Positions 5,546-47,408 of a DNA stretch of 64,000 nucleotides are shown here, one piece after another. The stretch spans positions 13,966,648 to 14,030,647 of the forward strand of contig CM073329.1 in NCBI GenBank assembly GCA_037043015.1, given 5' to 3'. The notes under the pieces were generated by a model. That model was not told where the DNA came from and ran no database searches. It was given only the letters and a program-made list of their open reading frames with translations. A program made the position numbers and the translations under genes. Each line of letters begins with the position of its first letter. Position 1 is the stretch's first letter. The stretch is from Bryum argenteum. Lineage: Eukaryota > Streptophyta > Bryopsida > Bryales > Bryaceae.

Positions 5546-7271
5546 TCAATGGCATGTGTTTACCTCACGTACTTACCTCGATCAAACAAAAAACAATTCA
5601 TGGATATAGATTTAAACCCTTTTTGTGGCACAACTTGAAATTCCACAAGATGTCATTGTTTACACTATTTTATTGTTTATTTTAGTAGTAGTTGGTTACT
5701 ATTCATACTTGCTTAGGTACCTTTAGTTATTCAAACAAAATACAATTTGCGTAGAAAAACATCAACCCCCTCTTGTTAAAGCATTGTTGCTAAGGCCAAC
5801 ACTCTCATTGGCCATCATTAGACTTCGCATGCATACCTTGAGCAACCAAAGAACAATCCATAAATATGCATTGTGTTTATCAATTCATTCATTACCAACT
5901 CATATTCAAGTCAAGGAGTTGGGTTTTGCAATTGTATTAAGCTTGAACACAATGCTATTCTATGGGATGTGAGAAGGTAAATACTACTATAAGCACTTGA
6001 ACAACTCTATTAAAGCCCGAGATGTGGGAGCTCAAAATTGAGGACTCGACAGAGGAAGAATGCAACATGTCCACTATTGTGAAAAGACATGACCATTGTT
6101 GTTTTTTGAGTGATTTCAAGACTCAAACTATGAAAACCATGACCATGTTGTGTTTTGAGTAACTATAAAGCACAAACTATCTTTCAATAAGTATATCTCA
6201 AAAATCTTTGGCTCAACTAAAGGACTGTAAGTGGCTACCATCCTCCTACATACCCTATTTGATTTTTCCAAAGCCTTGCCCTCATACGTGAAATACAAAA
6301 TTCACTAGGTCTAGAATTGTTCGTCATACTTCAATTCCTTGGCTTGAATATTGGTTGTTAGAATTGTGGTATAATATAAGGATTGTGGCTAATATAAGCA
6401 TTGTGATTGACCACCCTTCATACTAGGCGTACATAGCTTAATCAAACTTAAAACTGTTGATTAAGACATACTTGAACTCCCTTTATGTCAAAATTCATAT
6501 TGTTTCATTTGTGGTATATTACACCCCTGAACGTCCCGAGTGTTGGAAAACAACATTTTGGATGAAGAGCCACAACTTTGAAGAGCCATAACTTTTTCAC
6601 CTAGACTCACTCTGTTATGTACAAAATCACTTGAATTGGGTCACAAATCAAAGTCTTTTTTGTGTAGAAAATATGGCAACAAAATAGAATAAATGGCATG
6701 CATTTAGTCAAGGCTACTTTTGTTTTTGGATTTCTAAACATTTGGCATGTTTTACCATTGGCAAGCCAACTATATGAGATCAAAAAAGTTCTTCATGAAT
6801 TTTATTTTTAGAAATTTTAGTTTAATTTTCTATAAGTGTGATCTTTAGGTGCATCCCAACAACTCTGTAGTTGGAGTTTATTTGATCCATACAACTTTGG
6901 TATGGGTTCTGCAATAATGTTCCTAGGATGAAAAAGTGAAAAATGGATGAGATTTTACAAAACATACAAAAACTCACATATGAAATTCATTCACATATCC
7001 ATTCAGTTGTGGAGCGTCCCCTACATATGGCTAGTTTCACTATTTAGCTTGTTGTATTGGAGATTCTCTAAACATAAAAACTCACTATATAGCATATTGT
7101 TCATGAAGAGTTTAATTGAACAACATAAAAAACAAAAAAAAATCCATAATATTAAAAGTTTGTCTTCAAGAGGTTATCTAATTTGACTATTATAAATGCT
7201 TCATATGGGGACCGATGGTGTTATTGTGGCCTCTCATGTGGTTGGTGCACCTCCTAAATATCTCGGTTGGG
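5546..7271. other. Intergenic, AT-rich repeat debris
   Basis: No supported gene. The segment at about 6521-6960 is related in sequence to 14620-14990 and, in reverse orientation, to about 53950-54410, marking it as one of several decayed copies of a dispersed repeat. Confidence 0.4.
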
Positions 7272-7629
7272 CCAATCACATAAGAGTACACGTGCAACCC
7301 AAATTCCGTTAAAATGGCATTATTCCGGTAAAATGGCACACCTCAACTTTCTGAACTGTAGTTCAAAAACCATGTGATATAACAGAATTTTAAGGTGATA
7401 TTAGGGAAAATGAGTGACAATGTATATAAAGGAGTGATATTACAAAAAAATTGTGATATTACAGAATATACCAATTTATACGAGCACAAATGTAAGATCT
7501 AGTGTGACAAAATGGCACATGGTATATTGCCATTTTAACGGAATTGGGGTTGTGCCCTCCTTAGGCCCTCCCATGAACTGCTACATTCCACGTGTAACTG
7601 ACAGCTCTTACACAACTAGCTATATAAGG
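7272..7629 (+). promoter_or_regulatory. Promoter of the secreted repeat-protein gene
   Basis: A CCAAT box (7272-7276), a G-box CACGTG (7289-7294), a second G-box within CCACGTGT (7588-7595) and a TATA box TATATAAGG (7621-7629) lie in line ahead of the gene, giving a likely start near 7650. G-boxes are bound by plant bZIP and bHLH factors (light, ABA and stress responses). A MITE separates the two G-boxes, so the distal elements have been pushed about 260 bp away. Confidence 0.65.
7294..7553. mobile_element. MITE with ~25-bp terminal inverted repeats in the promoter
   Basis: The left end (GCAACCCAAATTCCG then TTAAAATGGCA) is mirrored by the right end (TGCCATTTTAACGG then AATTGGGGTTG). The inner part is AT-rich and repeats GTGATATTACA. 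No coding capacity. It ends about 70 bp before the TATA box of the repeat-protein gene. Confidence 0.7.
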
Positions 7630-7674
7630 CGAATGCTAAGGCTCATTTTACAAACACATCTTCGCCTTCTCTTG

Positions 7675-7936
7675 GTATGAACGTCAATCCTTGTTTCAAC
7701 TTCCTTCTTATGAAATGTGAGTTCTTGTTGTCTTTGCATGTTTGAGTTTATTACGTCGAACTACCCAGGGTTTGCTAACTTGACCATACATGTGGAGATC
7801 AATTCGAAGATTTTTTGTTGCTACTTTGTTTTGTATGTACAATCGTAGTACCTAAGTGATTGATGTATTAATCTTTTGTAATTACAACTTGATCATAGCC
7901 TAGAATATTTACATTGCCTTGTTTGTTTGCGTGTAG
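7675..7936 (+). other. Intron in the 5' leader of the secreted repeat-protein gene
   Basis: The donor GTATGA follows CTTCTCTTG, and the acceptor is TTTGTTTGCGTGTAG, one base before the first ATG. The inferred first exon (about 7650-7674) has no ATG. Leader introns often raise expression in plants. This is inferred from splice consensus, not from transcripts. Confidence 0.6.
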
Positions 7937-7937
7937 A

Positions 7938-8681
7938 ATGAAAGGACGAGACATGGCAATGAGAACCGTGTTAACTACATGGAGCTTCTGGCTCTTACTT
8001 TTTGTGGTACAAGCAGTTGCTCGAGCAGAAAATGCGGTCCAAGAGAAGGTTGAGCATGCAGGGTCGTGGGGCAAGTACAACGACGACCGACCACCGAAGA
8101 AGCCCAAGTTGATCTTTGATGGGCCCGCACCACCTTGGCTCAAGAAGGAGGAAGGTGCAGCGCTGATGAATGACGATTGGTCGCCTAAAAAACCCAAGTT
8201 GATTTCTGATGGGCCGGCACCACCTTGGCTCAAGAAGGAGGAAGGTGCAGTAGCGCCGATGAATGACGATCGGCCGCCAAAGAAGCCCAAGTTGATCTTT
8301 GATGGACCCGCACCACCTTCGCTCAAGAAGGAGGAGGGTGCAGCGCCATTCAACGACGATCGGCCGCCGAAGAAGCCCAAGTTGATTTTTGATGGACCCG
8401 CACCACCTTGGCTCAAGAAAGAAGACGGTGCAGCACCGTTCAACGACGACCGACCGCCGAAGAAGCCCAAGTTGATCTTTGATGGACCCGCACCACCTTG
8501 GCTCAAGAAGGAAGAGGGTGGAGCGTCGTTGAATGACGACCGGCCGCCGAAGAAGCCCAAGTTGATTTTTGATGGACCCGCACCACCTTGGCTCAAGAAG
8601 GAAGAGGGTGGAGTGCCGTTGAATGACGACCGGCCGCCGAAGAAGCCCAAGTTGATTTTCGATGAGCCCGCAACACCGTAG
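7938..8681 (+). CDS. Secreted tandem-repeat protein, candidate multi-peptide precursor
   Basis: A 247-aa protein of unknown family. The first ATG directly follows a likely 3' splice site; a second ATG at 7953 (ACATGGC) has a better context and would shorten it by 5 residues. Residues about 8-30 are a signal peptide with hydrophobic core WSFWLLLFVVQAV and a likely cut after VARA, so it should enter the secretory pathway. After a spacer (ENAVQEKVEHAGSWGKY) come six full 30-31-residue repeats and a seventh short one. The conserved parts are NDDRPPKKPK, LIFDGPAPPW and LKKEEG, with a variable 4-5 residue joint. Lysine pairs bracket LIFDGPAPPWL in each unit. There are no cysteines in the repeats and no membrane anchor. 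It could be a precursor cut into many copies of one peptide, or a proline-rich wall protein; the sequence does not decide. The promoter, leader intron and poly(A) signal support a real gene. Confidence 0.8.
   Translation: MKGRDMAMRTVLTTWSFWLLLFVVQAVARAENAVQEKVEHAGSWGKYNDDRPPKKPKLIFDGPAPPWLKKEEGAALMNDDWSPKKPKLISDGPAPPWLKKEEGAVAPMNDDRPPKKPKLIFDGPAPPSLKKEEGAAPFNDDRPPKKPKLIFDGPAPPWLKKEDGAAPFNDDRPPKKPKLIFDGPAPPWLKKEEGGASLNDDRPPKKPKLIFDGPAPPWLKKEEGGVPLNDDRPPKKPKLIFDEPATP
8068..8681 (+). repeat. 90-bp coding tandem repeat, six full units plus one partial
   Basis: Units of 90 bp (93 bp in the second) underlie the protein repeats. Most differences between units are third-position changes that keep the amino acid (ATC/ATT, GGA/GGG, CGA/CGG, CCA/CCG). 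The few replacements are W to S and F to S, plus RP to WS in unit 2 and E to D in unit 4. The joints differ most. Confidence 0.95.
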
Positions 8682-8768
8682 GGCATGAAACTGGTGTCCA
8701 AAGCTCAAAATTAGTGTGAACCTTAGCCTTCTCTAGGCGATGATGGTAGTTGTTGGCACAAATTTAGA

Positions 8769-8774
8769 AATAAA
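8769..8774 (+). terminator. Poly(A) signal AATAAA
   Basis: Lies 88 bp after the stop codon of the repeat-protein gene, within the usual plant range, and suggests transcript ends near 8790-8810. Confidence 0.55.
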
Positions 8775-8810
8775 GATTTTCAAGAATGCGAAGTGTCATT
8801 GATGGTCTTA

Positions 8811-10474
8811 ATCTCGTCAGGTTATAAAAACACTTTGTTTTGAATGGTTGCAAACTGATGGTGTAAGTTTTGTAATTAAATTTCTTTGCATTTTCAACAA
8901 AGTCATAGAATGCAAGGAAGTAAAAAAAAATGGCTTCTATGAATGTCCTATGTGTGTATCGAGCTAAGACTATAAAAAATCTCAATTTGATAATGCGGTG
9001 TTTTGTTTTTTGTTTTTCGTGACGAATGTGTGAAAAGTAGATTAGATCTTTCTATATATATTAAAAGTAGACAAGAGATCGTGCTTGTCTTCAGTAAAGT
9101 TGAATACTATAGAATCAAAGTTCTTATTTTCTTCCATATCACAACGCTAGATATGTGATTTTCCGACCGTTTAGCCATTCCTCTTGGAGTTTACTTGTGC
9201 AGACGTAAATTTATGAATTGTGACACAGAAATGATTCTAGTGTATATTCACAATTTTTTTTGGTTTACTCAAGGTATGTACCACAAGTATGAGAATTGAC
9301 CAACTACTTTCGTTAGCTTAGTTTAATTAATTTTATTTTCTTTTGAAACACAACATATAGAATTGGCCTTTTTGATTGCTCACCGTAACTACAATGTTTT
9401 AAGAGTTCTTTGGATGTGAACTTTTGAATACAAACAATAATCAAGTGTATGTCCATATATCTTATCCTAGTTTGATTAAGGGATGCACTTCTATTACGAA
9501 TAGTGACTTTAGCTACAATGCTTTAACCCCGTAATGTCCTTGGGGTGTTTTTAGCTTAAAACTCATTTTTGGATAAAGTGACATACATGTAAATAAATAT
9601 AAGTTATTTAGATCTCAATTGTACAAAATTGCAATAGACTTGTTGTACTGTAGAGCATATGGTCCAAAAATTGATTCAAAAGACCTTCTAGAGTGCAAGA
9701 CTTTAACGTTTTAGTGCGCAGAAAGGGCTAGGATAACTAAGAAAACATTCTTACTTTGAAGGAGAAGTACAACGAGCATGAAATTTGCAATCAAAAATTT
9801 AACGATTAGAGAGTTATTCTACTTCATCCCAAAGGCTTAGACATATTTGTAGAGAGAACAGTGTTTGAATCTCAACATGTGTAAGGAAAAATACTAAAAA
9901 CCTGTTACAGTTGGACTACCTAAAAGCGCCAGGGACCCAAAAGCGCTTTGTACCTCAGTTGTAGATTGTGAAAATACAGATGTACCTCATTTGTATATAA
10001 CGCAATTGGGTCAAATCTTACTTAGCACTTTGGAATTTCGTATAAAATTCACAAATACGAATTACATGTTGCAAATTTTTCCAATTCTCCTTAAAACCTA
10101 TTTCGAATGTGGTCATAATTTTACTTTGAATTTACTAGTGCTAAAAATAGGTCAGATCTCTTATAGGACACTCTACCTTATATGTGGTATGAAATGAGGA
10201 GCATGCATATCTATGTCTGCCCAACATTTTAACAGTCAGGTCAGGGAATGTTTATGACAATTACAGATTCTGTTAATTTAAAACTGACTAATTCCCTGTT
10301 GATAAAATAGTTGAGGGCATGTCAAGTTACAGGACCTGTTTGATTCTGGCATATTGTTATCTATGGTTCATGCGAATCTTCAATTTGTGGTTTATTTGAC
10401 TTGCCTCAAACAGTCCCTTATTCTAGAAGCATCCTTTTATCACTTGAAGATGATGTATTCTTTGACATACTTTC
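8811..10474. other. Intergenic, with one TTAA-type repeat segment
   Basis: No gene. From about 9520 (TTTAACCCCGTAATGTCC) the sequence is related to stretches starting at 53436 and 59434: all three share a motif around GACTTGTTGTA and a 'cat-gt-ggacc' landmark. A matching right end was not found. Confidence 0.4.
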
Positions 10475-11376: not shown

Positions 11377-13381
11377 CTCCTCCTCGATTGAGGAACACTT
11401 CACAACACTCCTCCTCGAAGGATGATCTTCCTCGTTAAAAACACTTCACGATGTTTTGAAGTGAAAAGAGTAAAGTCATCGTTCGCAATCTAATACACAC
11501 TAACTTATAAGGTGCTATGCTTGATTTTGACTACCATCACAAATGCTCATAAGACAACATCTTGGAACGCCTTGTGAAACGCTAAAAGTTCTCCTTCCAC
11601 CAGCTTGTCTATGTCTTCCTTGTCCTCCTCGCAAAGGCAATAGGGGTCCTCTCAATCTTGCTCCATCCAATCATGGATGCTGAAATCAGGATGATGTTCG
11701 CCATGTTGAAATTCTTCTGTAACGTCCTCACAGACGACTCCTACTTTGCTCTCATCTGCATAACAATTAATCTGTAATCCAAGACACTAAAAGTTGCCAC
11801 CAACACTTCCAATTCAAAGTTAGTATCACTTAGACAGACTTCATGACCCGTTAAAACATGTATCATCCGTCTAAGCATGGTCACTCTTAGGTAACTCATC
11901 TTTGAGTGCCAAAGTTGAACCTCGTCAGGTATGACAACTGAATATGTTGAATGGTCGCGGTGACCAATACTGAGAGAAGAGATCGGTTCTCATAGAGGCT
12001 GTTAGCTCCACAGTGTGCAGTAGCGAGGTAAAGCAGCGCTCCGACCACAGCGAGGTACTTTTGCTCATCCTTCTCATTCTCCTCCTCCTCGCAAGGTCGG
12101 TACGGGTCGTCTCTTGTGCTGCTCCTCCCGATCATTGGTGCCGAAAGGGACTTGGCGTTGGACATGTTAAATGCCTTGAGGAACTTCTTGGTGTAAGTGT
12201 CCTGGTGGAGAAGAATACTCCTGTCGGGAAGATGGCATACCTGAAGTCCAAGACAAAACGTAGTGCGGCCAAGGAGTTTCATCTCGAATTGAGTAGTGAG
12301 AAGCTCCTCAACCTCGGTGCACAATGCGTCAGTACCCACCAAATTGAGGTCATCTACATAAATTGCGAGGATAACAAAGACAGAATCTCAACAAAGCACA
12401 AAGATGCAAGGTAAGGCATCGCGGCATGTGAAGCCTTGATGAGTATGGAACCTCATGAGGTGATGATATCAGGCGCGCCCCAAGGCGTCAACAAGTACCA
12501 TGAGATTGCAGGAGCGCCTATGCGCTACCACTGCTAAACAAGCGAGTCTCATTGTTGTTCATTTTATCGCTACCACTGCTATGCAAGAGCGTCTTATGCC
12601 ACAACTAGGCCTTCGGAAGCACCGCCAGATTACATTCCCATGGCGCGTCCGCCATGATGGGTAATGCGTGAAGGTCAGTCGGTCCCGGTATCCATCACCA
12701 TCAAATTCACCTTCTCCATCAACAGTGGAAGCGTGAATGCCATTGGCAAGCAGAGCCCGGTAGCTGATCAGACTCCGGGGTGCATCAGGAGCATACATAG
12801 CCCTCTCAATCCTTAGGGGGAATCCCCCGGGCAAAACCACTCTTGCCCGGCGCTCTCGAAACTTCAAGTTTCGCCTTCCGGTAATCATGACAAGGTCACA
12901 ATTCAACCAGGTATCACTCGTGGAATTAAAATTCCGGTTTCCCTTCACTAGGGCATCCTCCCAATATGGGCATGGCATAGGCTAGTTACTTCTTCCATAT
13001 CGGTGGCGAGGATTGACGTCCCTGTAGAAGTCGCGGCGGTCGCTGTGGTAGTACATGTCGTGGCGCCCTGAGTCATGGTGTTGTAATAGGTCAAAGGGGG
13101 TGATCAGAACGAGGGTTTTAACTGAAAAACAAAGAGCGCTCGAAACAATCTAAAGCAATTTAAATTAGAACAAAGAAAGGATCTTCTTGAATGACAGAAG
13201 AAAGTGAAGAATCAAGTAGGAGGTTATGAGCAACGTCGACGGTTGATCTGGAAACACATGAGTAAACAAAGAGATCTAACAAAAGCAACGAGATTAAGAC
13301 ATCACGAGCAAAAAACAAAGAAAAAATAACCCTAAATCCAAAGTCTAGCACCAAAAAGCAAGAGCGAAAGTGCTGATAACG

Positions 13382-29800: not shown

Positions 29801-32800
29801 CCCGGTTGCAAGGAAAACCTCCTAACCCTCAGTTACAATAAAACTTCCTAACCCCTTGGTCACAAAGAAAACCTTCTAACCCCCTTGGTTACGATAAAAA
29901 CCTCCTACCCCCTCGGTTACGACAAAAACCTCCTAACCACCCTCGTAACCCTTGAGCCTCCGCAACGCACAATTACAAAACTTCCCTATTCATAACCCCC
30001 ACTTACGAGGTAAACCTTGTAACGTGGAGTTACAAAACCCTTAGTTTTGTATCCCCCTGTTACAAGGAAAACCTCATAACCCTCCTTGTAAACTTCATAA
30101 CCTCGTAACGCACTGGTAATAGTTTCTTGTAACTCTCTAGTTTCAAACCTCGTAAACCCCCTTGTAACCTTCTATTAATCTTGGTAACTTGAGTTACGGG
30201 GTATTACTCGTTCCCAATTACAAGATTTCAGTCATAACCATAGTTTCATGGTTTCTCTTATAACCCCAATTACTAAATGTCCCTCGTAACTCCAATTACT
30301 AGATTTCCCTCGTAACTCCCAATTATGGAGAAATCTTGTAACTTCCTAGTTATGACGAAAACCTCATAACTCCAATATTATACACTACAATTCATTCAAT
30401 ATATATAAATAAGAAATTTCTATGAATGTTTTACGTATGAATTTGCTTGAAAATACTTTCATTCAAGCCAAGTTAGGGGCTATCTTTGCTATCGACAGGG
30501 GCTAAGAAGGTTACAAGAAAAACCTTGTATTCTCAATTGCAGTTCCTGACGACAATTGCAATTTTGAGTGATTGGCGTATAAAAGACAAGAGTTGGAATC
30601 TCCAACTGTACAGAGAACAACCGTTATAGTTGCAATTCCCCGAGAAGACAAGGATCGACTAACAAGGTTGTGATTTATTGATGTAGAGAAAAAGACAATT
30701 GCAATTTATAAGAAAGTAGGATTTGACTAGCGTGTAAAGAAAGGCAATCGCAATCTCCGACAGATACTTGACCCACGTGAAATGCAGGTAGGAATGATAT
30801 TTGATGGATAAACTTCCTTTGATAAATAGACTCCTTGTAATCCTTAATTACAAAAAAACCTCGTACTTTACACCAACAAAGAAAATCTCGTAATCCCTAG
30901 TTCTAAAGAAAACCTTGTTATTTCCACTTAATCTCTTAATCTTCTACTCCTCAATTACAAAGAAAACCTTGTATTTTTCAGTTACTAAGAAAACCATGTA
31001 ATCCAGTTATGAACAAAACCTCGTAATTTCCAATTCCAAAGAATACCTTATGGTGTCCAATTACAAAGAATACCTAGTAATTTTTAGTTACCAAGAAAAC
31101 CTCGTAAGTAGAAAATAGCCTCGTAAGCCTTGGTTACTAAGAAAACCTCATAATTTCTAGTTACAAATAAAAGCTTGTACTTCCAAGTTACAAAGAAAAC
31201 GTCTTACTTTCAAGTTACAAAGAATATCTTGTACTTTTCAATTACGAGGAATACCTTGTAATCTTAAGTTATGAAGAAAATCTTGTAAGCCCTGCTTTTG
31301 AAGAATACTTTGTAAGCCATAGTCAGGACAAAAACGTTATAATTTGTAATACAAATAAAACCTTGTCAATTCGAGGCATGTAAAAAACATTGTATTTTGA
31401 AGTTATAAAAAATTCATCGTAATTTCAGTTACAAAGAAGAAAACCTTGTAATCCCATGTTACGAAGAAAACCTCGTAGTTTCCAACTAGAGAAAAAGCCT
31501 CGTTACTTCTAATTACGAAGAAAATCTTGTGATTCCCACTAATGAAGAAAGCCTTGTAATTTCTAGTTACAAAAACAACCTTGTAACTCTCACATAAAAA
31601 AAAAAAACCATTGTACTTCCAATTTACGAAAAATACACAGGAATTTCAGGTAACGAAGAAAACCTTGTAATCTCTAGTTACGAAGAACATAACCTCGTAA
31701 CCCACTTACAAAGGAAACATCGTAACTTCTATTTACAAAAAAAACTTCATAACTCCGTGCTGCAAAGAAAACCTCGTATTCACAATTGCAATTCCTGACG
31801 ACAGATGCAATTTTTGATTGATTTGCTTATGAAGGACGATAGCTGCAATTCCAACTGTAAAAAGAAGAACGATCGTTGTAGTTGCGATTCTCCATTCCAA
31901 CTGTACAGAGAAGAGGATGACCGTTACAGTTGCGATTCTCCGACAAGATATGGATCGACCAACAACACTGGAATTCATTGACTTTAAGAAAAAAACAATT
32001 GCAATTCACAAGGGGTAGGATTTGACTGGCTTATAGAGAATGGTCGTCGCAATTCCAGACAAAGAATTGGCCCACGTAAAATGCAGGTAGGATTATATAT
32101 TTGATGAATTAACTTCCTTCAATGAGTGAAAACCTTGTAATCCTCGGTTACAAAGGAAACCTCGTAATCTCCAATTACGAAGAAGAAAACCTCGTAAACC
32201 CACTAATAGAGAAAACCTCGTAACTTCCAATCACAAAGAAAACTGTGTAATTTCCATTTACAAATAAAACCTTGTAACTCCCCAATTGCAATTCGTGACG
32301 ATAGTTGTAATTTCTCATTGATTGGTGTTTAAAGGACGATAATTGGAAATTTCAACTATCGACAGTTGGAAATTCCAACTACCGACCGCTGCAAATTCCA
32401 ACTGCCAAACAGTTGCAAACTCGAACGACCGACAACTGCAAATTCCAATTGCCGACAGTTGCAAATTCCAACTATCGTCTACTGCAAATTCCAACTGTTG
32501 ACAGTTGTAAATTCCAACTGTAGAGAGAACGATCATTGTAGTTGCGATTCCCCGACAGGATACGGATCTACCAATGAGGCTAAGATTTATTGACTTAGAG
32601 AAAAGACAACTGCAATTGATAAGAGGGTAAGATTTGACTGGCTTACAGAGAATGGCCGTCGCAATTCCCGACAAAGAATTGGCCCACAAAGAAATGCTGG
32701 TAGGATTACATATGTGATGGATAGACTTCATTTGATGAATGAAAATCTTGTAATTGCCAGTTACGAAGAAAACCTCGTAACCCCCAATGTTACACAAAAC

Positions 32801-32870
32801 CTCGTAACTCCAATGTTACACAAAACCTCGTAACTCCAATGTTATGCACTACAATTCACTGGGAATATGA
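29801..32870. repeat. ~27-bp minisatellite (AAAACCTCGTAA type) with larger repeated blocks
   Basis: Degenerate units like GTTACAAAGAAAACCTCGTA followed by ATTCCA fill 29800-30400, 30840-31780, 32110-32290 and 32740-32870. Between them lie three copies of a longer block at about 30515-30840, 31775-32110 and 32284-32740, each with GTTGCAATTC or similar, GGATCGACCAA-type and AATGCAGGTAGGA landmarks. This is therefore a higher-order array. Confidence 0.8.
32340..32525. repeat. 24-bp minisatellite with self-complementary units
   Basis: About eight units of CAGTTGCAAATTCCAACTG type joined by CCGA. Each unit's CAGTTG and CAACTG can pair, giving a row of small cruciform-capable sites. Confidence 0.8.
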
Positions 32871-32979: not shown

Positions 32980-33560
32980 TAGCTATGTCCACAGCCTCAA
33001 GGCAGCCATGTACCTCCACACTCCATAGAGCAGACTCAGCAGAGGAACAGAGGGCCGCGGGACGCCGGGAAATGCCGCCGGAAGACGGGGAAGTTCCTCC
33101 CGCCGCAGCGGTCCGCCGCCGCCAGAAGCCGCGGCGGTGTCGGTGCCCGGTCGCGCCTCACGCGACCAGGGGCGCGGGTGGCCGCCGTGCCAGCAACTGC
33201 AACAGAACAGCGCCGTTCTTCTTACGCCGTCGTCAGACGCTGTCGCGCGACTGCGACCGTCACCTCCCGTCATCTCTCTCCCTGGCACTCTCCTTCCTTT
33301 CCCCTGCCCTCCTTCTTTCTGGCTATGGTGGCTCGCCCCCTGCTCTCTTCCTCCAGCCCCTTTCCCTTCCTTTTCAAACCCTTACCCCCTCCTACTCCCT
33401 CTCCCCTCCCTAACCCCCCTTCCACAGCTCACTTGCACTTTCTCTTTTCGCTAGCCGCACGCACTTGTGATAAGCACAGTAGAGCTCATCCTGTTCCCTT
33501 TCCCGCTGCAACACTACCGCCGCAAAAGTGGCAGCTGGCCGCGTCTCGGCGAGCTTAATT
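32980..33560 (+). promoter_or_regulatory. GC-rich promoter/leader region of RAPTOR
   Basis: A sharp GC rise (CCGCCGGAAG-, CCGCGGCGG-type sequence at 33050-33240) is followed by a long C/T-rich tract at about 33270-33440. This is typical of TATA-less plant housekeeping promoters and first exons. ORFs in this stretch shift between frames and lack recognisable protein, so I read it as regulatory. The exact transcription start cannot be seen. Confidence 0.5.
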
Positions 33561-33701
33561 CTGTGTTTCCGTTAGGTTTTCGAAGGAGTGTCTTTGATAC
33601 CGAGTCTGCCCTAGAATTTGGATAACTGCGGCGCGATTTCGCATTTCGGGGTTTGAGGATCGCGAGTACTGGTTTAGGAGTAAGGAGTAATTTTTTCCAT
33701 T

Positions 33702-33908
33702 ATGTGGAATTTGAATTAGAAGCATTGGAGATACGGCATTAATCTTGATGCTGGAGCGTGGAAATGTTTGAACCTCGAGAGTTACGGGCGCCTTGTGTCG
33801 CCTGTTCTTTCGTGCAATGGCGGCCCCCTGATTTTCAGTAGAGGATTGATTGTTGCTATAGATGTAATGGTGGCAAATGGCGTTGGGAGATGTAGTAGTG
33901 TTGTGTAG
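33702..33908 (+). promoter_or_regulatory. Cluster of upstream ORFs before the RAPTOR start
   Basis: Five upstream ATGs precede the main start: 33702-33719, 33748-33771, 33817-33831, a minimal ATGTAA at 33862-33867, and 33867-33908, which overlaps the main start in another frame. If the leader is unspliced here, scanning ribosomes would meet all of them, so translation should depend on reinitiation or leaky scanning. Confidence 0.55.
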
Positions 33909-36900
33909 GCAACGGTCCATGGATAGCATGGGAGGAGGACATATAGGTCCGACCTCGTCTCGTATGGCTGATGATTTATCAAGAAGGAACCAGCAGGATG
34001 CTGGTGCACATCACCTTGCTCATCAGCATCATGAAGATGAGAGGCGCTGTGGTGCTGCTGCTGCCATTGACAACAATCCTGCTACTACTGCCGGAGTGTC
34101 GTTTCTTTCGAATACTTCCTACCTATGTGACTTGCGTCATGATGCTGATGAAGCTGCTGTTCCCGCGGCTGAACCTGGCGCTGTCTCAAGATGGAGGATG
34201 AAGGACAGAGTAAGATAACTACATCTCAACTCACATTGCATTGCTTGCACCATGAAGCTTCTCTTGTTGTAGCTGGACTCTGTTAGTGCTTTAGTGCATT
34301 GACCTAATTCTTCACGGAGGCCAGATTGTCGAGAATTAGAGAGTGGCCAGTTACCCTACTGTGCGTAATTGCTAACAAAAGATAGCAGTTTCAGTCCACC
34401 AGCTGCAGAAATGTGACAATTTCGTGCTTGTTTACGAACCTCTGTTTGCCTCGCCCCGCGATTTATCAAACACCATCGTTGTATCTTGTTGAAGACACTT
34501 AAAAGAGCGTTGACTGTGTCTTACCCATGGGGCTTAAATTGGTCATATGCAGAAGTGGAGTTTTGAAATTGTTACAAGTAATTTTGGGGCATGAATTCAG
34601 TATTGACGTTGCACTTTATGGCATATGACAGATGAAAACAGGTTGGGTGGCGTTGTGTCTGTGCTTGAATATTGGAGTGGATCCGCCAGATGTTATTAAA
34701 ATCTCGCCATGCGCCCGATTGGAATGTTGGATAGGTAATGAATTTGCTATTTATTGGTAATAAAATGTTGTTTTTTGTGCAAGTTTCTGGTGCAAATCAC
34801 AGTAGGATGCTTTTCTATTGTTTCAACCGCACGACTTGTTGCTTTCAATCGGTGCATGGACCTTTTCGGAGGTCTCAATTCACGGTTCGTTAGCTGAAGG
34901 CACTTGTTCATACTTTGGTAACTCCTGACCTTTTGACGACTTTTAAACATGCTCTTCAATGTGCAGATCCATTCTCAACTGCATCTGTGAAAGCATTGGA
35001 AGCAATTGGGAAAAACCTGCAAGCTCAGTATGAGCGGTGGCAGCCCAGAGTAAGCAGCGGTGTCTTTTCTTTTTTCTGAGTTGGGTCTATATTTACAAGA
35101 AGCACTTTTCGTTAACAAATTTATGAGCTTTGGTAGTTGAACAGGGATACTCTGGTATCTCGATCAATGATCTTCTCAGTGCCAAATATTGGTCCATAAT
35201 GGAATGGAGAACGAAAACTGTTAGATTTGTTGCTTATCCGCTCATCACTGTGCTTGCAGGCTCGTTACAAAGTCAGTTTAGACCCCACTGTTGAAGAGGT
35301 CAAGAAGTTGTGCCTTAGTTGCCGGAAAAACGCGAAGGGCGAGAGAGTGTTGTTTCACTACAACGGCCACGGTGTTCCAAGACCTACAGTCAATGGGGAA
35401 ATATGGCTGTTCAACAAGGTTGGCATTCAGCTCATTGCATATAGCAGCTGGTTTTACTCACCTATACGATTTTCCCAGGCCACATATATGTACCTGTTGG
35501 TTGTCCAAAGTAGTATTAGCTAGCTCGATGATAAGAAATGAAGAATACGTATCATGTCTTAAGTATATATTATTTGTTACGTATCTTGCAGAATTTCACT
35601 CAGTACATACCTCTCTCGGTTTACGAATTGGAGTCGTGGCTTGGAAATCCGTGCATTTATGTATTCGATTGCTCAGCAGCTGGCATGATCGTGAATGCTT
35701 TCTGTGAGGTACGATGTTCCTAGCCACTTGAACGTTTAGAGTTCAGAAGTGGGTGACGCATGAGTGGTCACTCATTTCTTTGGACATGTCTGTAGCTGTT
35801 TTATTCAGTTTGTCTTGCATCACTACTGCAGTAGCTGCTCAATATCAGAAACTGATTTTGTCTGCAACAGCGGCCTGAGTGGGGTCCTGGGGGAACATCC
35901 TCGAGAGATATGGCTTCCGCAATGAAGGACTGCATCCTGTTGGCTGCTTGTGGCGCCAATGAATCACTTCCTCAAGACACGGAACTGCCGGCTGATGTTT
36001 TCACTTCCTGTCTGACAACTCCGATCAAGATCGCCTTGAGATGGTAACCTCTGAACTTCTGGATGAAAGTACTTTGATTCTCATGAATGTTTTCTGCCAT
36101 TGGTCGTATTTATTCTCTTTGAGATGGATGATTTATTGCAGCACATCCCCACTCTTGCTCACTTGAATCCCCTTGTCTTCAACTGGTTTTGTAATTGAGT
36201 GATAAGTATTGTAATTCTCTTGATTCAGGTTCTGTCCCCGGTCTCTACTTGATTTGGATCCCGAGCTCATAGACCAGATTCCCGGACGGCAGAATGATCG
36301 GAAAACTCCTCTGGGGGAGTTGAATTGGATCTTCACAGCAATAACTGATACAATCGCATGGAATGTGCTCCCGCGAGGTGAGCAGTTCGAATATCTGAAT
36401 TTTTGCGTTATTGCATATTCAGGACTCACAGTCTCCATTCTTTTTTTTGGTGAACTGATTGTCTAAGGCCTTAACACTTGTTTTCAAAAACTAAAATCTT
36501 TGTTCTGTTTTTTAGAGCTGTTCCAGCGGTTGTTCCGGCAAGATCTCCTTGTTGCGAGCTTGTTTCGCAATTTCCTACTGGCGGAACGCATTATGAGATC
36601 GGCAAACTGTTGTCCACAGTCGTATCCTCGACTCCCATCCACACATCAGCATCCTATGTGGTATGGAATTTGCTCTTTCCTCACTCTCTTTTCGTTGTTG
36701 TCGCGGCGATTCGTGATAGCTATTGTGGATGCCCATTGTAAGAAGACGTACGTGCTTTATTTCTATAGCAGTCTAACTGCTTTTCAGATGCACTATAAGG
36801 ACAATGCGTGATATTGCTGCGGAACGTGGTTACTGTTCATCGCCTTTGCACCTCCATTCATTTTGTGCTGTTTATTGCAGGCATGCATGGGACATGGCAG

Positions 36901-39900
36901 CCGAAATCTGTCTTTCACAGCTGCCAATCTTGTTGAGGGATTCGAATGCTGAGTTTCAGGTTTGCAACTCTTTTAGTGTTCAGTGTCATAGTTGAAAATA
37001 GCCGTATTTGTTAGTATCTGATTTGGTAAATATACTTCTGAAGATGTACTTGTGCGTGCAAGTTATGTTCCTTTTCCTAATGGGTAATGATGAACGTCTA
37101 AAATGTTCTGTTCATGCTGTAGATATTTGTAAGATTTGGAGTGATTTGAATTGTTGTACGTCTGTGCTGCAGCCAAGTCCCTTCTTCACGGAGCAATTGA
37201 CGGCTTTTGAAGTATGGTTGGAGCATGGTTCTGAAAGGAAGAAGCCACCAGAGCAGCTTCCCATCGTACTGCAGGTGTCACATCATACTGTACCTGCAAA
37301 TATTAGTGATGCTTGGATTTTGATTCTTTCGGATATACGATCACAGATAGATGCTGTCCAAGGGCTTATCTTTGTGGTACTTTTGGGTCCCATGGGCGTG
37401 TATCTGCCTTAAATATCACGCATTGTCCTTATAGTGCATCTGAAAGTACGTCTGTGGCGTGAAGCTGCATACCTAGTTGTTGTCCTTATTAGTGTGATGT
37501 TAATGGCTGTGACTCTGCAGGTCTTGCTGAGCCAGTCCCATAGATTCCGAGCTCTGGTACTCTTGGGTCGGTTTTTGGACATGGGAGCGTGGGCCGTCGA
37601 CTTGGTAATATGACTTTCTATTTTTCGTTGATGGTGACTTTTTATGACTCTCTGCTCAACTAGCTCAAATTTGAAATGTAGGAATAGATTAGTCTCTGCA
37701 GACTCGGGAAGTATATTTCCAGTATCCTTTGGTTACTGTACTAAGAAGTTTAAGTCTTGTTGATGTGGTATTACTTGTTTCACCAGGCGTTATCTGTTGG
37801 AATATTTCCATATGTCCTCAAGCTGCTGCAAACAACGGCTACAGATTTACGACAGATTCTTGTGTTCATCTGGACGAAGATTTTAGCTCTTGACAAGGTA
37901 GCTTTTTGTTTGATTCTTGCTCGTTCGTAAGGTCTTACATAGCTTATGGAGGTCTGTAGTTTATCCAAAATGGCCGTTTCTGAAAACAAAACATCATTGT
38001 GTATTGAAGAAATATCATTGCGTATATAGAAAGAAGGTTGGCAGTGCGAGTAGCCCCCTTTGGCTCCTGTAAATAGTTGTAGGTCGGGTTGATGTTCATG
38101 TTCTTAATTTTCAGGCATTCAGAAGTTTCAGGTTCAAATGCACATCCTTATAGATGGGATTGATTATATTTCAAACGCAAGCGCACCTTTAACTCTTGTT
38201 TATTGTATCTTTTGGTTGACAATGTTGCAGTCTTGCCAAGTGGATCTCGTCAAAGACGGCGGTCACTCTTACTTCATCCATTTCTTGGAGAGCCCTGACA
38301 TCCATGCGGAACAGCGTGCCATGGCTGCGTTTGTTCTCGCAGTCATAGTTGATGGCCACCCACATGGTCAGCAAGCTTGTATAGAAGCTGGACTCATAAG
38401 CATTTGTCTCTCACATATACAAGCAGTCTCGAGCATACAAGCAGCTCCAAATGCCCCACCGCCTGAGCCCTTGCTTCTTCAGTGGCTTTGTCTGTGCTTG
38501 GGGAAACTCTGGGATGGTATGCCAGAAGGGATTACTAGAGCTCTTGATTTGGATGCACCTGCAATCCTCGGGAAAGTTCTCTCTGAGCCACAGCCTGAGG
38601 TGAGAATAGATGCTGTTCAAAGACCTTTCAAACGTATACTACGCTCATAAATTATTCTGCGCTTATTAATTCTCTAGATGCAGGCTGGTTATTTGAGAGT
38701 TTCCTTCTAGAAAGATATCTGGGTACTGATATATTCGATATATTTGCACTGAAGTGGAATTCTGTTGATCTTCTGTTACTTATTTGTTTTACTGTTTCCA
38801 GGTTCGTGCGGCTGCTACATATGCACTGGGTACTCTTGTTAAAGTTGGAGTTGATGGTGTTTGTGCGGGAGGAACTGACGATGAGGTGGATGAAGTGAGC
38901 CAAGCTGCAGAGCAAAGAGTAGCAAGTCTACTTTTGAAAGTTCTGTGTGATGGAAGTCCACTTGTTCGAGCTGAACTTGCTATAGGTGAGATCCATTTTC
39001 TCGTATTTGTTTTTACTTTCTTGTGTATTGTTTTTACCTTTCTGAAGAAGTGGTAAATACACTCGGCTGTTTTCTATACTAATACATCATACGTTGTTGA
39101 CTGTCATGTTCCAGCAATGACCCGCTTAGCATCAAGTCACAACAGGATGTTCCGACAGTCAGCTGCAGCTTACTTAAGACCTCCATCGCATACAGCAGTG
39201 TTGCCTGTCTATGCAACAGGCTACAGGAACCCAGGGTATCCGTACTCCACGCAACTCATGTATTCCAATTCGCATCCAGACGCAGATCAGGGTCTTTTGA
39301 GCTTGGATGGAGGGACACCCTACCGCTCAGTAATGCGCATTGTCCGCAGCAATGGTTCATTGGCAGGCTCTCCAGGTACTCACAGTCTCTGATAACTTGA
39401 ATCACTACTTTCGTGCTAAATAGCAGATTTCGAGTGAGGGAAATTGCTGCATGAGTATTATGACAAGTAGGGTTCGCTTAGGCGCATATATTAAGCATGA
39501 GCGATCACGAAAGCTTGCGTATTTCAATGCGATTGCAAGGATCTTGATTGATTTTTTTTGGTACGTACATTGATCCTCTTGACTGATTGGATTTCAGGCT
39601 CTGCGGGGCACTCTCCATTATCTGATAATGGGGTGCTTGGAGATGCCAATGGTGCTGCCTCAAGCAACGGAGGAGGATCTCGCCTCTACAGACGAAGCGA
39701 GGAAAATAGTGTCTATGTACAATGCATCATGGCTTCTTACGCACTAGCGAGGGATCCTTTCCCTCGCGTGGCTAGTCTGGGCAAGAAAATTTTACGAATT
39801 GGTGGACTTGAGTCAGCTCCAGTTGTCGTAGCCTCAAGGGCTAATGGTGGCGTCCTCAGCTACCCTCGAAACCCTCCTGTTGCAGCACTACCTCCTACTC

Positions 39901-42795
39901 CTATGCCTGGTGTAATGCATCGATCTACATCGTGGGTAGCATCTTCCTCAGGTCAGTTATGTGGGGATCATATCCTGGGCTACCACTGGGCTTTCTGTTG
40001 TTCTTCTTTCCATTTTTCTTTGACACCTACGGTAAATAATGGAGCTATTCGGGTTTTCGATGATATCAATTGGAAGAATTACGCACTTAAGCTGACACTT
40101 CCAGCTTTTATTCTGGGCAGGGAACCTTGCAAGCACATGGCGAATTACAACACCACCTCCCAGTCCTCCCACTCGACCAGCATTTCTTGCAGGCTCTACT
40201 AGTACACTCAGGCGTGTGGCATCTATGGACATCTCCGCAGCACTGAATGGAAGTTGGGATACTTCTCGACCTGGTGTGCGATTAGCTGGTGATATTATTG
40301 CTCATGCTTCAACTCCAGGTCTTACTACACTAGCACCTGGGTTAACCGATGCTACTGGGAAGTTGACTTCTGGACTGTCAACAATCACTTTGGAGGCGGG
40401 CTTAATCTCGCCTCAATTGCCGGAATCAACCATTTATAAGTGGAGTTGTGGACACTTTTCCCGGCCTTTGTTGGAGCCATCTCATGATGATGAAGAAGAA
40501 ATTTTAGCTCGTCGGGAAATGAGAGAGAAGGAGGCGTGCAATGGCATTGCTAGATGCCAACATTCAAGTAAGTTCTTCTCTTGAAACTTAAATTTTCTGA
40601 CTGTTCCATTTCTTATCCCAGTTTATGGTTATATAAGTAGGGGCAGGGGAGGTATGGCCCTTATTGGTGTTTATCACATTGGTTACAGGTGTAAGCAAAG
40701 TGACCGATCAAATTGGCAGCTGGGACACTGGATCTGAAGTGGGAACCAAAGCTGTGCTTATGCATCCATTTAAACCTCTAGTCTGCATTGCAGATGACGA
40801 TGAGACTATCAGGTACTGTTTACAACGTTATTTTTTTGTCATCTGGGAGGGTCGATAAACTCAATATTTGCAAGGCAGAGGGGAATTCGTTGATAACTTC
40901 ATATCTTATTATGGTGGCTGTGCCTCTGATTTCTGCTCGTACTGTACTTGCAGGATATGGGATTATGATGCAGACGAAGTTGTGAATACCTTCGACAATC
41001 ATCACAATCTAGAGAAGGGGGTTTCTAAGCTTTGCTTGCTGAACGAGTTGGATGATAGCTTGCTACTTGTTGCTTCAAGTAAGTTGCCTATTTTCACTTG
41101 TGATCCTTCGACGTCTGTTTACAACTTCCCAGTAAATGTGGCTTTACATGAATGTCTATGAATATTAAACTAGTTCCTGGATTTAATCATGGTGTAATCT
41201 GTTCTTTGTAGATGATGGAAGCATAAGGGTCTGGAAAGACTATACACAGAAAGGCAAGCATCGCCTGGCAACGTCGTGGCAGGCCGTGCAAGGCCACGGC
41301 CCTGCTGGACTAGGCATCACTGCCGTGGTAGACTGGCAGCAGATGACGGGTTGCTTGGTAATACTTCGCAGCCACTCTTATAATTTTCATCCGTTTGCTG
41401 GTTCTAGTTCGTTCAGTTATGATTTATCGAGAGTCTACTTTCTCGTGGAGGATCTTAATATACTTCTTAACGTACTCTTGCTTACATTATCTTTTAGTTG
41501 AGTTTACTACAGGTTCATGGTGGTTGAGTTATTATTGAGCCCAGCCGTTATTACTCTCTCGTTTTGCAGTATGCGACAGGGCAAACCTCTAGTATCATGG
41601 TGTGGGATCTTGATCGGGAGCAGCTTGCCTCCAACATCTCTACCCATTCAGACAGTGCTATATCTGTAATGGTATGTAGTCCGGAATGAGATGTTTTTTT
41701 TTTTTATCTCCTTTTGAGAATTCTTCAAGTAGCTGGAGTTCATTATCGGCACAATATGGCTCACTTAAGCTTTGCATTGCAGGCCGCTTGTCAGACGCAT
41801 ACTTCTCATGTGACCACTGGCTGCGGTGATGGCTCTGTCAGGGTGTATGATATACGCTCCCGAGAAATGTAAGTGTCTGAGTTCTAGTACGCCATTCAGT
41901 TCTCACGCTGATTTTTCTGAACTCGAACTTCACTGTAGTTAATAATCTAGATAGCAGATAATCTGGTCAGCTTCTCGAAATATTCTTTAGCTAATAAACC
42001 GTTTTGAATCGAATCTACAGGCTTGTGTGTGCCATGAAACCCCACACTACAAAAGTCGTGGGCCTCGACTTTCAACCTGGAGCTGATCATACCAAGGTAA
42101 TCTTTCACTCTTTGATGACGATTCCCTCATTTAACATTGTCCCTCTTCATTTCGTTGGAATCTAATAAGGATGAACATTGCTCATGTAATGGTGGAGGCA
42201 CCTATTATGTAGTTACTGAAGTCTTCAGAAACATCTATTGTTGCTATAGATGCGAAATTCAAAATGCTTTTAAACAGATTCTAATCCCTCGACAACTTCT
42301 GCGTACCATATTTAAATCACACGTTTATTGCTGCACTGGAAACATCCTTCAGGGATATTCGACACTTAATATAATAGGCAACAAAAGATACCATTTTGGG
42401 TGTCTCTACCCTAGCACATTCATGCTTACTTTGTTATGTGGTGGAAGCAGATGATTTCAGCATCACAGGCAGGCGATATGAAGATGCTCGACATAAGAAA
42501 GAGCTCAGCACCGTACCTAGAGGTGGAAGCTCACAAGGGCAACTTGACTTCAATGGTGGTACACCGCTACGCTCCCGTAATCGCCACAGGGTCTGCGAAG
42601 CAGTTACCAGTAATCAAGACGTTTAGCACAAACGGGGAGCAGTTAAGCATGGTGAAGTTCCACAACAGCTTCTTAGGTCAACGGATTGGTCCAGTGACCT
42701 CCTTGTGCTTCCACTCGTACAACGTCTACCTCGCTGCTGGCGCAAGCGATTCCATGGTGTCCATCTATGCCGGAGAAAGCGTCCAGGGAAGATAA
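33877..42795 (+). CDS. RAPTOR: RAPTOR, TOR complex 1 scaffold and substrate-recruiting subunit
   Basis: Binds TOR kinase and presents substrates such as S6K in the cytosol. 24 exons: 33877-34209, 34632-34734, 34967-35049, 35260-35418, 35592-35708, 35871-36043, 36229-36377, 36516-36660, 36881-36959, 37173-37274, 37521-37604, 37787-37897, 38231-38599, 38802-38985, 39115-39375, 39598-39951, 40121-40567, 40689-40812, 40954-41078, 41212-41357, 41570-41671, 41783-41868, 42021-42096, 42451-42795. These total 4257 nt, 1418 aa, with all introns GT-AG and all phases consistent. The start MALGD matches Arabidopsis RAPTOR1 as I remember it. The caspase-like RNC domain spans about residues 112-330, with the His/Cys pair H210 (FHYNGHG) and C253 (VFDCSAAG). 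HEAT-type repeats cover about 340-830, then a variable Ser/Pro-rich linker, then seven-bladed WD40 from about 1085 to the end ([12 protein letters not shown]). It appears complete and intact. Exon edges are hand-derived. Confidence 0.96.
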
Positions 42796-43320
42796 TACTC
42801 ACTCACTATTCAAGTCTGGGGAAGTAGTGGGGGTTGGTTGATTTTTAAGCACTTATTTAAGCAGCAGCAACAGCAGCAGCAGCCTTTCTGTGTCTATACC
42901 TCTCTCTTTCTCTCTTTCTATGATAGGATTCCTTATTCTTGCTAGAGGGGAGTCTCCCACCGTATGTATCTTTGTACATCCATTGATTCTGGTTATACTG
43001 AATTGCTTCGTATGTTCTGTTACGTGACGATTTTTTCATTTTCCGGAACACTTTGACTTTGATACAACACTGGATTCTATGACAAACGTGCTTCAGCGTT
43101 TGTCTTGTAATTTGAATAGTATTATCGGTGCATTGCAATCTTATCATTGGTCAACCTACAATGTCTTGCCATGTTTTGAACGTCACTTTTGGTCCGATTT
43201 TTCCAAGTATGCTCCTAGTGTTTTTTCATTCTCAGAAACTTTTGGAGCATTGGATCTAGGTAGTGTTGGGAACTTGTTAATGTATATTTGTTGTGTTCTT
43301 ATCATACTATGGAGATGAAT
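42796..43320 (+). other. Probable RAPTOR 3' UTR
   Basis: T-rich sequence after the stop, with a short CAG repeat (about 42862-42886). No clear AATAAA was found, so the end is approximate. Confidence 0.45.
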
Positions 43321-46537: not shown

Positions 46538-47283
46538 CATCTCCTTGGACGTGGGTAATAAGGAGATGTGCTTATATTCCGAGTAGCACCACAAAACCGT
46601 GGAGTAGGAGATATCTAGCCTTTGATCTCATTCTTAAATGTACATTACAGCTTGATTGGTTGAAGAAACACCAATGACATCAACTTCCAAAATTCATAAG
46701 TGAATAAAGAAAAGTTTAAAAATTTGATCCTCAAACATCATTACTCTTTAACTAACTTTACACATTCTCTTAAAAAATAATTCTTTGACCATTCTATGAG
46801 GAACTCATTTCTAAACTTATAATTTGCCTCTATGTCTCCAACTTTAAATAAAATAAAATTTAATGAATATTGGTAGTAGTTTAAAGGATATAATTCAATT
46901 TCAAATATAAATGGCAAAGCTCTTTTGAGTGAGCTTTATAGCTTCTCACTAACCTTGTTGTAAAAAATTAAAGCAATTGACCACCTAGTTGCAGAGGTTG
47001 ATTACAACAGGTAGGGAGGTAACTACTATATGTTAAAAGTTGGTGTAAGATATACATTGATTGCAAATTTTATATATTTCATTTGTCATCAATGAGTTGT
47101 TTGATACATTTATTGCTTGTGATTTCAAATTGGAGCAAACAGGCGTATTTAATCTTGAATTTAACTTTGCAAATCATAAAGCATCTTGACTTTGGCGACT
47201 TCTTCATCTAAAAGATAATTGTTTACAATATGTTGCAAATGAGAAACTCCAAACCATTTTTTACTCAAAATATACATTTATGT
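46538..47283. other. Intergenic, nothing recognised
   Basis: AT-rich sequence without an element or gene that I can support. Confidence 0.4.

Positions 47284-47408
<125 letters not shown>

What the first reader, a model, noticed from the sequence alone, without database searches (positions are those of the whole stretch)
7938..8681. Secreted protein built from seven near-identical modules: a candidate multi-copy peptide precursor
A signal peptide is followed by six full 30-residue modules and a seventh short one. In each module the block LIFDGPAPPWL lies between lysine pairs (KKPK before, KK after), with acidic spacers and a variable joint. Repeated identical segments between dibasic sites is the design of animal prohormones; some plant peptide precursors also carry several copies. 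I know of no plant family with this module. It may instead be a proline-rich wall or storage protein.
Basis: partly seen in the sequence, partly recalled or inferred. Interest (0 to 1): 0.8.

Follow-up and report, generated by a model that had tools for sequence, protein, structure and literature searches.

The report
Moss secreted repeat protein family
A genome that is most likely a moss's carries a family of secreted proteins, about a dozen of them intact, made of many copies of one short, strictly kept proline- and lysine-rich block; it may be a store of signal or defence peptides or a cell-wall protein, and its function is not known.

Summary
The gene is real: a signal peptide, six full modules and a short seventh; tandem-repeat score 857 against at most 56 in 200 codon shuffles. 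The genome is most likely a moss. The gene is one of 23 related places there, 12 with intact frames. The relatives change the picture: what is kept is not LIFDGPAPPWL but NDDRPPKKPKLI. Of 117 loosely anchored modules 116 keep KKP, and the pair KK is never changed; pN/pS is 0.01 for KKPKLI and about 0.8 for the spacer. The GPAPPWLKK stretch occurs in 16 of 116 modules of the intact genes, 6 of them in the window gene, which is unusual in having amplified it. Most KK pairs (116 of 133) precede proline, a poor site for dibasic processing. Best reading: a secreted array of a short sequence-specific block, possibly released as peptides, but not by prohormone-style KK cleavage. An intact extracellular or wall protein is nearly as likely. 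No family model over its cut-off and no relative outside this genome was found in the collections searched.

The parts
6970..7620 (+). upstream flank still alignable to relatives on this and other chromosomes (not along its whole length)
   Evidence: leftmost match 982-983 bases before ATG 7953 for 10 of 17 relatives, nearer for the other 7
7621..7627 (+). TATA box (TATATAA)
   Evidence: 95-103 nt before the leader donor in 12 of 12 intact copies, 96 nt in the window copy
7650..7716 (+). 5' leader exon 1; start inferred from the TATA box; ends with a short upstream ORF (MK*) across the splice
   Evidence: no RNA data
7717..7936 (+). leader intron, 220 nt
   Evidence: GTGAGT donor and GTGTAG-type acceptor kept in relatives
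7953..8681 (+). coding sequence, 242 aa from the conserved ATG (7938 is an alternative start 5 codons upstream)
7953..8021 (+). likely signal peptide MAMRTVLTTWSFWLLLFVVQAVA, cleavage by the A-x-A rule before R24 (by eye; no predictor run)
   Evidence: aligned with MAMRTVSVVWSLWLLLFVVGALA in relatives
8022..8078 (+). N-terminal pro-region
8079..8168 (+). module 1 (NDDRPPKKPKLIFDGPAPPWLKKEEGAALM)
8169..8261 (+). module 2 (31 codons; NDDWSPKKPKLIS...)
8262..8351 (+). module 3 (PPSLKK)
8352..8441 (+). module 4
8442..8531 (+). module 5
8532..8621 (+). module 6
8622..8678 (+). terminal short module NDDRPPKKPKLIFDEPATP; the other intact genes except L015 end in a 15-residue stretch such as KKPKLIFDEPAPLRG
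8682..9143 (+). 3' flank alignable to relatives
   Evidence: output cut, several relatives seen; distances

Best explanation
A nuclear gene of what is most likely a moss encodes a secreted, probably disordered protein whose business part is an array of one short block, NDDRPPKKPKLI[L/F], repeated 6 to 14 times with short free joints. Each block is read by a partner that needs its exact sequence, lysines and Leu-Ile included; the array multiplies the dose or valency. I think it slightly more likely than not that the blocks are released as short Pro/Lys-rich peptides by cuts in the variable joint (the E-xxx-PL region), not at the KK-Pro sites. Shown here: the gene structure by comparison, the gene family, strict conservation of the block against a free spacer. 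Inferred: secretion (from the signal peptide), disorder, a binding partner, release as peptides.
For: Family of 23 places, 12 intact, the intact ones sharing TATA box, leader intron and signal peptide. Of 117 anchored modules 117 keep KK, 116 KKP, 115 KKPK and 114 KKPKLI, while Pro and Ile codons of the same block vary synonymously. pN/pS between genes 0.010 for KKPKLI, 0.22 for DDRPP, 0.83 for the five spacer positions of 76 20-residue modules. The first 36 residues (signal peptide and start of the pro-region) are under milder constraint, dN/dS about 0.4-0.5. Copy number (6 to 14) and module type differ between genes, so what counts seems to be many copies of the core. No confident fold: mean pLDDT 44.3, single sequence.
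Against: No RNA, protein or peptide data. The joint in most modules has only about three free residues, short for a processing linker. Partial homogenisation within genes (78 20-codon modules, 0.892 identical within genes against 0.811 between) adds to apparent conservation. The modules for the pN/pS table were picked by a pattern that demands KKP and L (114 modules), so 0.01 is a lower bound; the looser anchoring gives the same picture. A wall protein that needs an exact repeat would look the same. Ten of the 23 places are visibly broken and an eleventh lacks the signal peptide, so the family as a whole may be loosely held. One relative, L016, has lost or never had KKPK.
Confidence: 0.42

Rival explanations
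1. An intact Pro/Lys-rich extracellular or cell-wall protein: the basic KKPK patches bind acidic pectin or another wall polymer at regular intervals, and no peptide is released.
For: 17-20% Pro, pI 8.9-9.6, and no Cys in 10 and one Cys in 2 of the 12 mature parts; a regular 20-residue period in most modules outside the window gene; KK followed by Pro is a poor processing site (116 of 133); variable copy number is common in wall proteins (recalled).
Against: Nearly invariant Leu-Ile and the lack of Lys/Arg exchange in KK are stricter than charge binding needs; no SPPP or PPVxK-type extensin/PRP repeat seen by eye; one Tyr in the window's mature part.
Confidence: 0.36
2. A multi-copy precursor of Pro-rich antimicrobial peptides, built like the insect apidaecin polyproteins.
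For: Similar layout: leader, many Pro-rich basic repeats, spacer with acid residues; several genes on different chromosomes. The apidaecin core PRPPHPRL (PMC11549390, passages read) looks like DRPPKKPKL by eye.
Against: Resemblance of a short Pro-rich string is weak and was not tested against chance; no RREAEPEAEP-like processing signal; the block runs on into Ile-Leu-Asp-Glu, while apidaecin ends at its Leu; each block carries acid residues.
Confidence: 0.12
3. Prohormone-style precursor: LIFDGPAPPWL cut out between lysine pairs.
For: KK kept in 26 of 26 GPAPPWLKK-like stretches found, broken copies included (partly circular); six copies in the window gene; one or two copies near the N-terminus in 9 of the 11 other intact genes.
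Against: Absent in 100 of 116 modules and in 2 of 12 intact genes; the leading pair is KK-Pro; plants are not known for general dibasic prohormone processing (recalled).
Confidence: 0.06
4. A selfish or decaying repeat family copied with flanking DNA, without present function.
For: 23 places of which 10 are visibly broken; copies on C2, C3, C5, C9 and C10; pairs share from under 1 kb to about 5 kb.
Against: 12 intact frames with codon-position-biased variation and strong constraint on the core; no common left end among pairs.
Confidence: 0.04

Closest known systems
Apidaecin-type Pro-rich antimicrobial pre-pro-polyproteins of bees and wasps
   Same: leader plus many Pro-rich basic repeats; conserved core with variable remainder; several genes, usually on different chromosomes (PMC11549390, passages)
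   Different: no RREAEPEAEP-like processing signal; Lys instead of Arg; core continues past Leu; plant; no activity known; likeness is by eye only
Plant multi-domain peptide precursors (CLE with several domains; CEP and HypSys recalled)
   Same: secreted precursor with several copies of a short conserved block; multi-domain CLE precursors of two to nine domains, in nematodes and some plants, are mentioned in PMC8618561 (passages)
   Different: the block has no CLE, CEP or HypSys signature (signatures recalled); copies are head to tail with joints of about three free residues in most modules
Proline-rich / hydroxyproline-rich wall proteins (PRP, extensin, PELPK type; recalled)
   Same: signal peptide, Pro- and Lys-rich, repetitive, no Cys in most copies
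   Different: no PRP or extensin motif seen; repeat is longer and stricter, with nearly invariant Leu-Ile; one Tyr in the window's mature part
Animal dibasic prohormones (recalled)
   Same: many copies of a block flanked by basic pairs in the window gene
   Different: most pairs are KK-Pro; the flanked block is missing in most of the relatives' modules

Membership tests
Dibasic multi-copy prohormone | signal peptide and repeated block | tested here: met
   (signal peptide judged by eye)
Dibasic multi-copy prohormone | cleavable basic pairs (KR, RR, KK, RK without Pro after) flanking the block in relatives | tested here: not met
   116 of 133 KK are KKP; KK[EA] 16; KR 2, RR 3, RK 0 in the 12 intact proteins; GPAPPWLKK missing in 100 of 116 modules
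Dibasic multi-copy prohormone | released mature peptide | not testable with these tools
   no peptidome data
CLE / CEP / HypSys multi-domain precursor | family signature in the repeated block | tested here: inconclusive
   no Pfam family over its cut-off for the window protein or the four relatives scanned (of 11 other intact ones); I did not check which of these peptide families Pfam covers, and the motifs were compared only from memory, without a match
PRP / extensin wall protein | Pro-rich, Lys-rich, secreted repeat protein | tested here: met
   Pro share, Lys counted for the window protein only (35 of 218 mature residues)
PRP / extensin wall protein | SPPP or PPVxK-type repeat | tested here: not met
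   not seen in the 12 printed protein sequences, by eye; motifs recalled
PRP / extensin wall protein | localisation in the wall | not testable with these tools
   needs fractionation
Apidaecin-type polyprotein | RREAEPEAEP-like processing signal between repeats | tested here: not met
   spacers are mostly xxxPL or EE(R/G)xAP; signal as described in PMC11549390
Apidaecin-type polyprotein | antibacterial action on the ribosome | not testable with these tools
   needs synthetic peptide

The most novel reading that the evidence does not exclude
A moss lineage has its own family of about a dozen multi-copy precursors of a new secreted peptide with the core RPPKKPKLI, whose copy number is freely tuned by tandem-repeat turnover while the ligand sequence is frozen, and which is cut in the free joints and not at basic pairs.
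Probability: 0.28. Interest if true: 0.75.

Novelty: new variant of a known kind. Interest (0 to 1): 0.47.

Why it matters
If the block is a released ligand, mosses would hold an unrecognised peptide family with an extreme multi-copy design, and a receptor to look for. If it is a wall protein, it is a clear case of a repeat under very strong sequence constraint with free copy number, useful for asking what binds a KKPKLI patch. Either way the contrast between frozen core and free spacer points to the exact peptide to synthesise.

Tried and rejected
Grass origin: I first took about 260 Mb in a dozen large contigs for a rice relative; the plastid contig carries accD and trnR-CCG next to rbcL, so this was dropped (that grasses lack accD is recalled). 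Transposon-borne family: left ends of homology differ between pairs, from a few hundred bases to the 3.4-kb limit of the comparison, with no common end; right ends were not mapped pair by pair. Known family: no Pfam model over its cut-off for the window protein or four relatives (four of 11 other intact relatives were scanned), no PDB sequence for the window protein. The weak XPG_N, CvfB_WH, CT021 and OGG hits are below their cut-offs and rejected. Relatives elsewhere: none in viral contigs (2 stretches matched a pattern, none confirmed) or genome contigs (14, none confirmed); these collections hold viral and prokaryotic contigs, so this says nothing about other mosses. A weak match of the L016 query at C1:2.88 Mb (27% identity, E 8e-4) was not counted as a relative. 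Papers: motif strings PAPPWL, PPKKPK, FDGPAPP and NDDRPPKK, KKPKLI, RPPKKPK, DDRPPK gave nothing relevant; topic searches showed no such family in the rows listed, nor did the passages read. Species name: not found. The distance for the 5' leader of the window copy (0.718) is probably inflated by a deletion in the alignment and was not used. A likeness of KKPKLIL to a MAPK docking motif (recalled) was dropped because the protein carries a signal peptide.

Full report
Observation. The frame 7938-8681 (+) is open for 247 codons and holds a 90-bp tandem repeat of 6.6 copies. Codon shuffles do not give this: of 200, two had any array, best score 56 against 857. Distances between successive KK sites are 30, 31, 30, 30, 30, 30, with a last stretch of 13. 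KKPK stands before 7 of 7 blocks and KK after 6 of 6; the block LIFDGPAPPWL itself is exact in 4 of 6.

Where it is. The window is C9:13966648-14030647 of a 258.8-Mb genome in 25 contigs. A 114.6-kb contig, C12, carries rbcL, trnR-CCG and accD in that order (accD named by eye). The family RNA_pol_A_bac (rpoA) gave 4 matches, 2 over the cut-off, none on C12; the best is a 346-residue frame on C3. An rpoA in the nucleus and not in the plastid is a known mark of mosses (recalled). The best PDB match of rbcL is 9chz, which I believe, from memory, to be a hornwort enzyme. I call the plant a moss, most likely; the species is unknown.

Family. Searches with the window protein and a relative and with the divergent relative give 23 places by my count: 12 within 350 kb on C9 (13.97-14.32 Mb), four more on C9, three on C2, two on C10, one each on C3 and C5. 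Of the other 22 places 21 lie in the 19 stretches fetched; the one at C9:3.19 Mb, a match of the signal-peptide part only, was not fetched. 12 of 23 have a frame intact from signal peptide to stop; one of these, L015, has lost its native 3' end. Ten are visibly broken by stops or frame shifts: L011, L012, L013, L016, one copy in L017, L020, L025, L027, the place at 3.19 Mb and a fragment at C9:14.098 Mb. The other L017 copy is an open stretch without the signal peptide. Signal peptide (MAMRT...VVGALA), a TATA box 95-103 nt before the donor, and a leader intron are shared by the 12 intact copies. In one search the script found the acceptor in 11 of 12; in L026 it picked a wrong site and the alignment shows the acceptor.

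What is kept. I anchored modules on DDRPPKKPKLIL with up to five mismatches in 12: 117 modules. KK is kept in 117, KKP in 116, KKPK in 115, KKPKLI in 114; the module without KKP is the altered tail of L015. No K of the pair is R. Synonymous codons vary at sites of the same block (Pro CCC 62, CCT 46, CCG 7; Ile ATT 61, ATC 42, ATA 12), though the lysines are mostly AAG (108 and 114 of 117). pN/pS between genes (114 modules chosen by a pattern that demands KKP and L, so biased downward): KKPKLI 0.010, DDRPP 0.22, 12-codon core 0.134, the LDE positions 1.56; the five spacer positions of 76 20-residue modules 0.83, within which the first three are free and Pro-Leu is kept. By codon position, variation in the core is 0.54, 0.39 and 2.40 (116 modules), as expected of sense coding. 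The first 36 residues have dN/dS 0.41-0.48.

The GPAPPWLKK stretch. It occurs in 16 of 116 modules of intact genes: all 6 full modules of the window gene, two in L022, one in each of eight others, none in L009 and L023. Outside the window gene it sits in the first to third module. In the loci held, broken copies included, 26 such stretches were found with up to four mismatches and all keep KK (the search string held KK, so partly circular). So it is a distinct, kept element, but the window gene's use of it six times is the exception.

Dibasic idea. In the 12 intact proteins there are 133 KK pairs after the signal peptide; 116 are KKP, 16 KK[EA]; KR 2, RR 3, RK 0. Pro after the pair blocks kexin or furin cleavage (recalled). 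The missing exchange with Arg suggests that lysine itself is selected.

Divergent relative. L016 shares the upstream region and signal peptide but has repeats of PAPPYNRKAVLDE type and a frame shift; KKPK is not kept there. It is one frame-broken copy, so it says little about function, but it counts against an unbreakable rule.

Fold. AlphaFold2 on the window protein alone: mean pLDDT 44.3, 192 of 242 residues under 50. Without an alignment this is weak evidence of disorder.

Interpretation. A frozen 12-residue block, repeated 6 to 14 times with free joints, in a protein with a signal peptide and with no Pfam family over its cut-off and no PDB relative, points to sequence-specific recognition of the block. 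Whether it is released as peptides or acts in place is open; I put these at near-even odds. Apidaecin-like polyproteins of insects show a similar layout (PMC11549390, passages), and multi-domain CLE precursors are the nearest plant precedent in design (PMC8618561, passages). Neither is claimed as a family for this protein.

Limits. No other moss genome could be searched here; the two collection scans hold viral and prokaryotic contigs. No expression or peptide data. Counts from the genome search are lower bounds by its own statement. That the family is not in print rests only on the searches in an open-licence library.

Noticed in passing
leader exon of the 12 intact copies; window 7710-7716 across the intron to 7937: An upstream ATG seven bases before the donor opens a short upstream ORF after splicing; in 8 of 12 copies it reads MNGSK...WQ* with its stop overlapping the main start, in the window copy MK*, in L009 MN*, in L022 it is in frame with the main ORF, and L026 was misread by the script.
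   Followed up: partly
L016 (C9:14.291 Mb): A relative with a shared upstream region and signal peptide but a quite different repeat, PAPPYNRKAVLDE, and a frame shift; a fragment of the same type lies at C9:14.098 Mb.
   Followed up: partly
window 11896-12387 (-): Reverse-transcriptase fragment (Pfam RVT_2, E 2.5e-10), from a Copia-type element by its family (recalled).
   Followed up: no
window 33000-43000 (+): A probable multi-exon gene whose last part has WD40 repeats; its exons look like RAPTOR (recalled, not tested).
   Followed up: no
window 29814-32844: Several diverged tandem arrays, mostly of 23-57 bp units, many with AAAACCTCGTAA-like sequence.
   Followed up: no
window 47270-47405: Long AT array, listed as 34 units of ATAT.
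   Followed up: no
L039 1638-3143 (plastid contig): A 501-residue open frame upstream of a petA-like frame; it looks like cemA with a long AT-rich insertion (names recalled).
   Followed up: no
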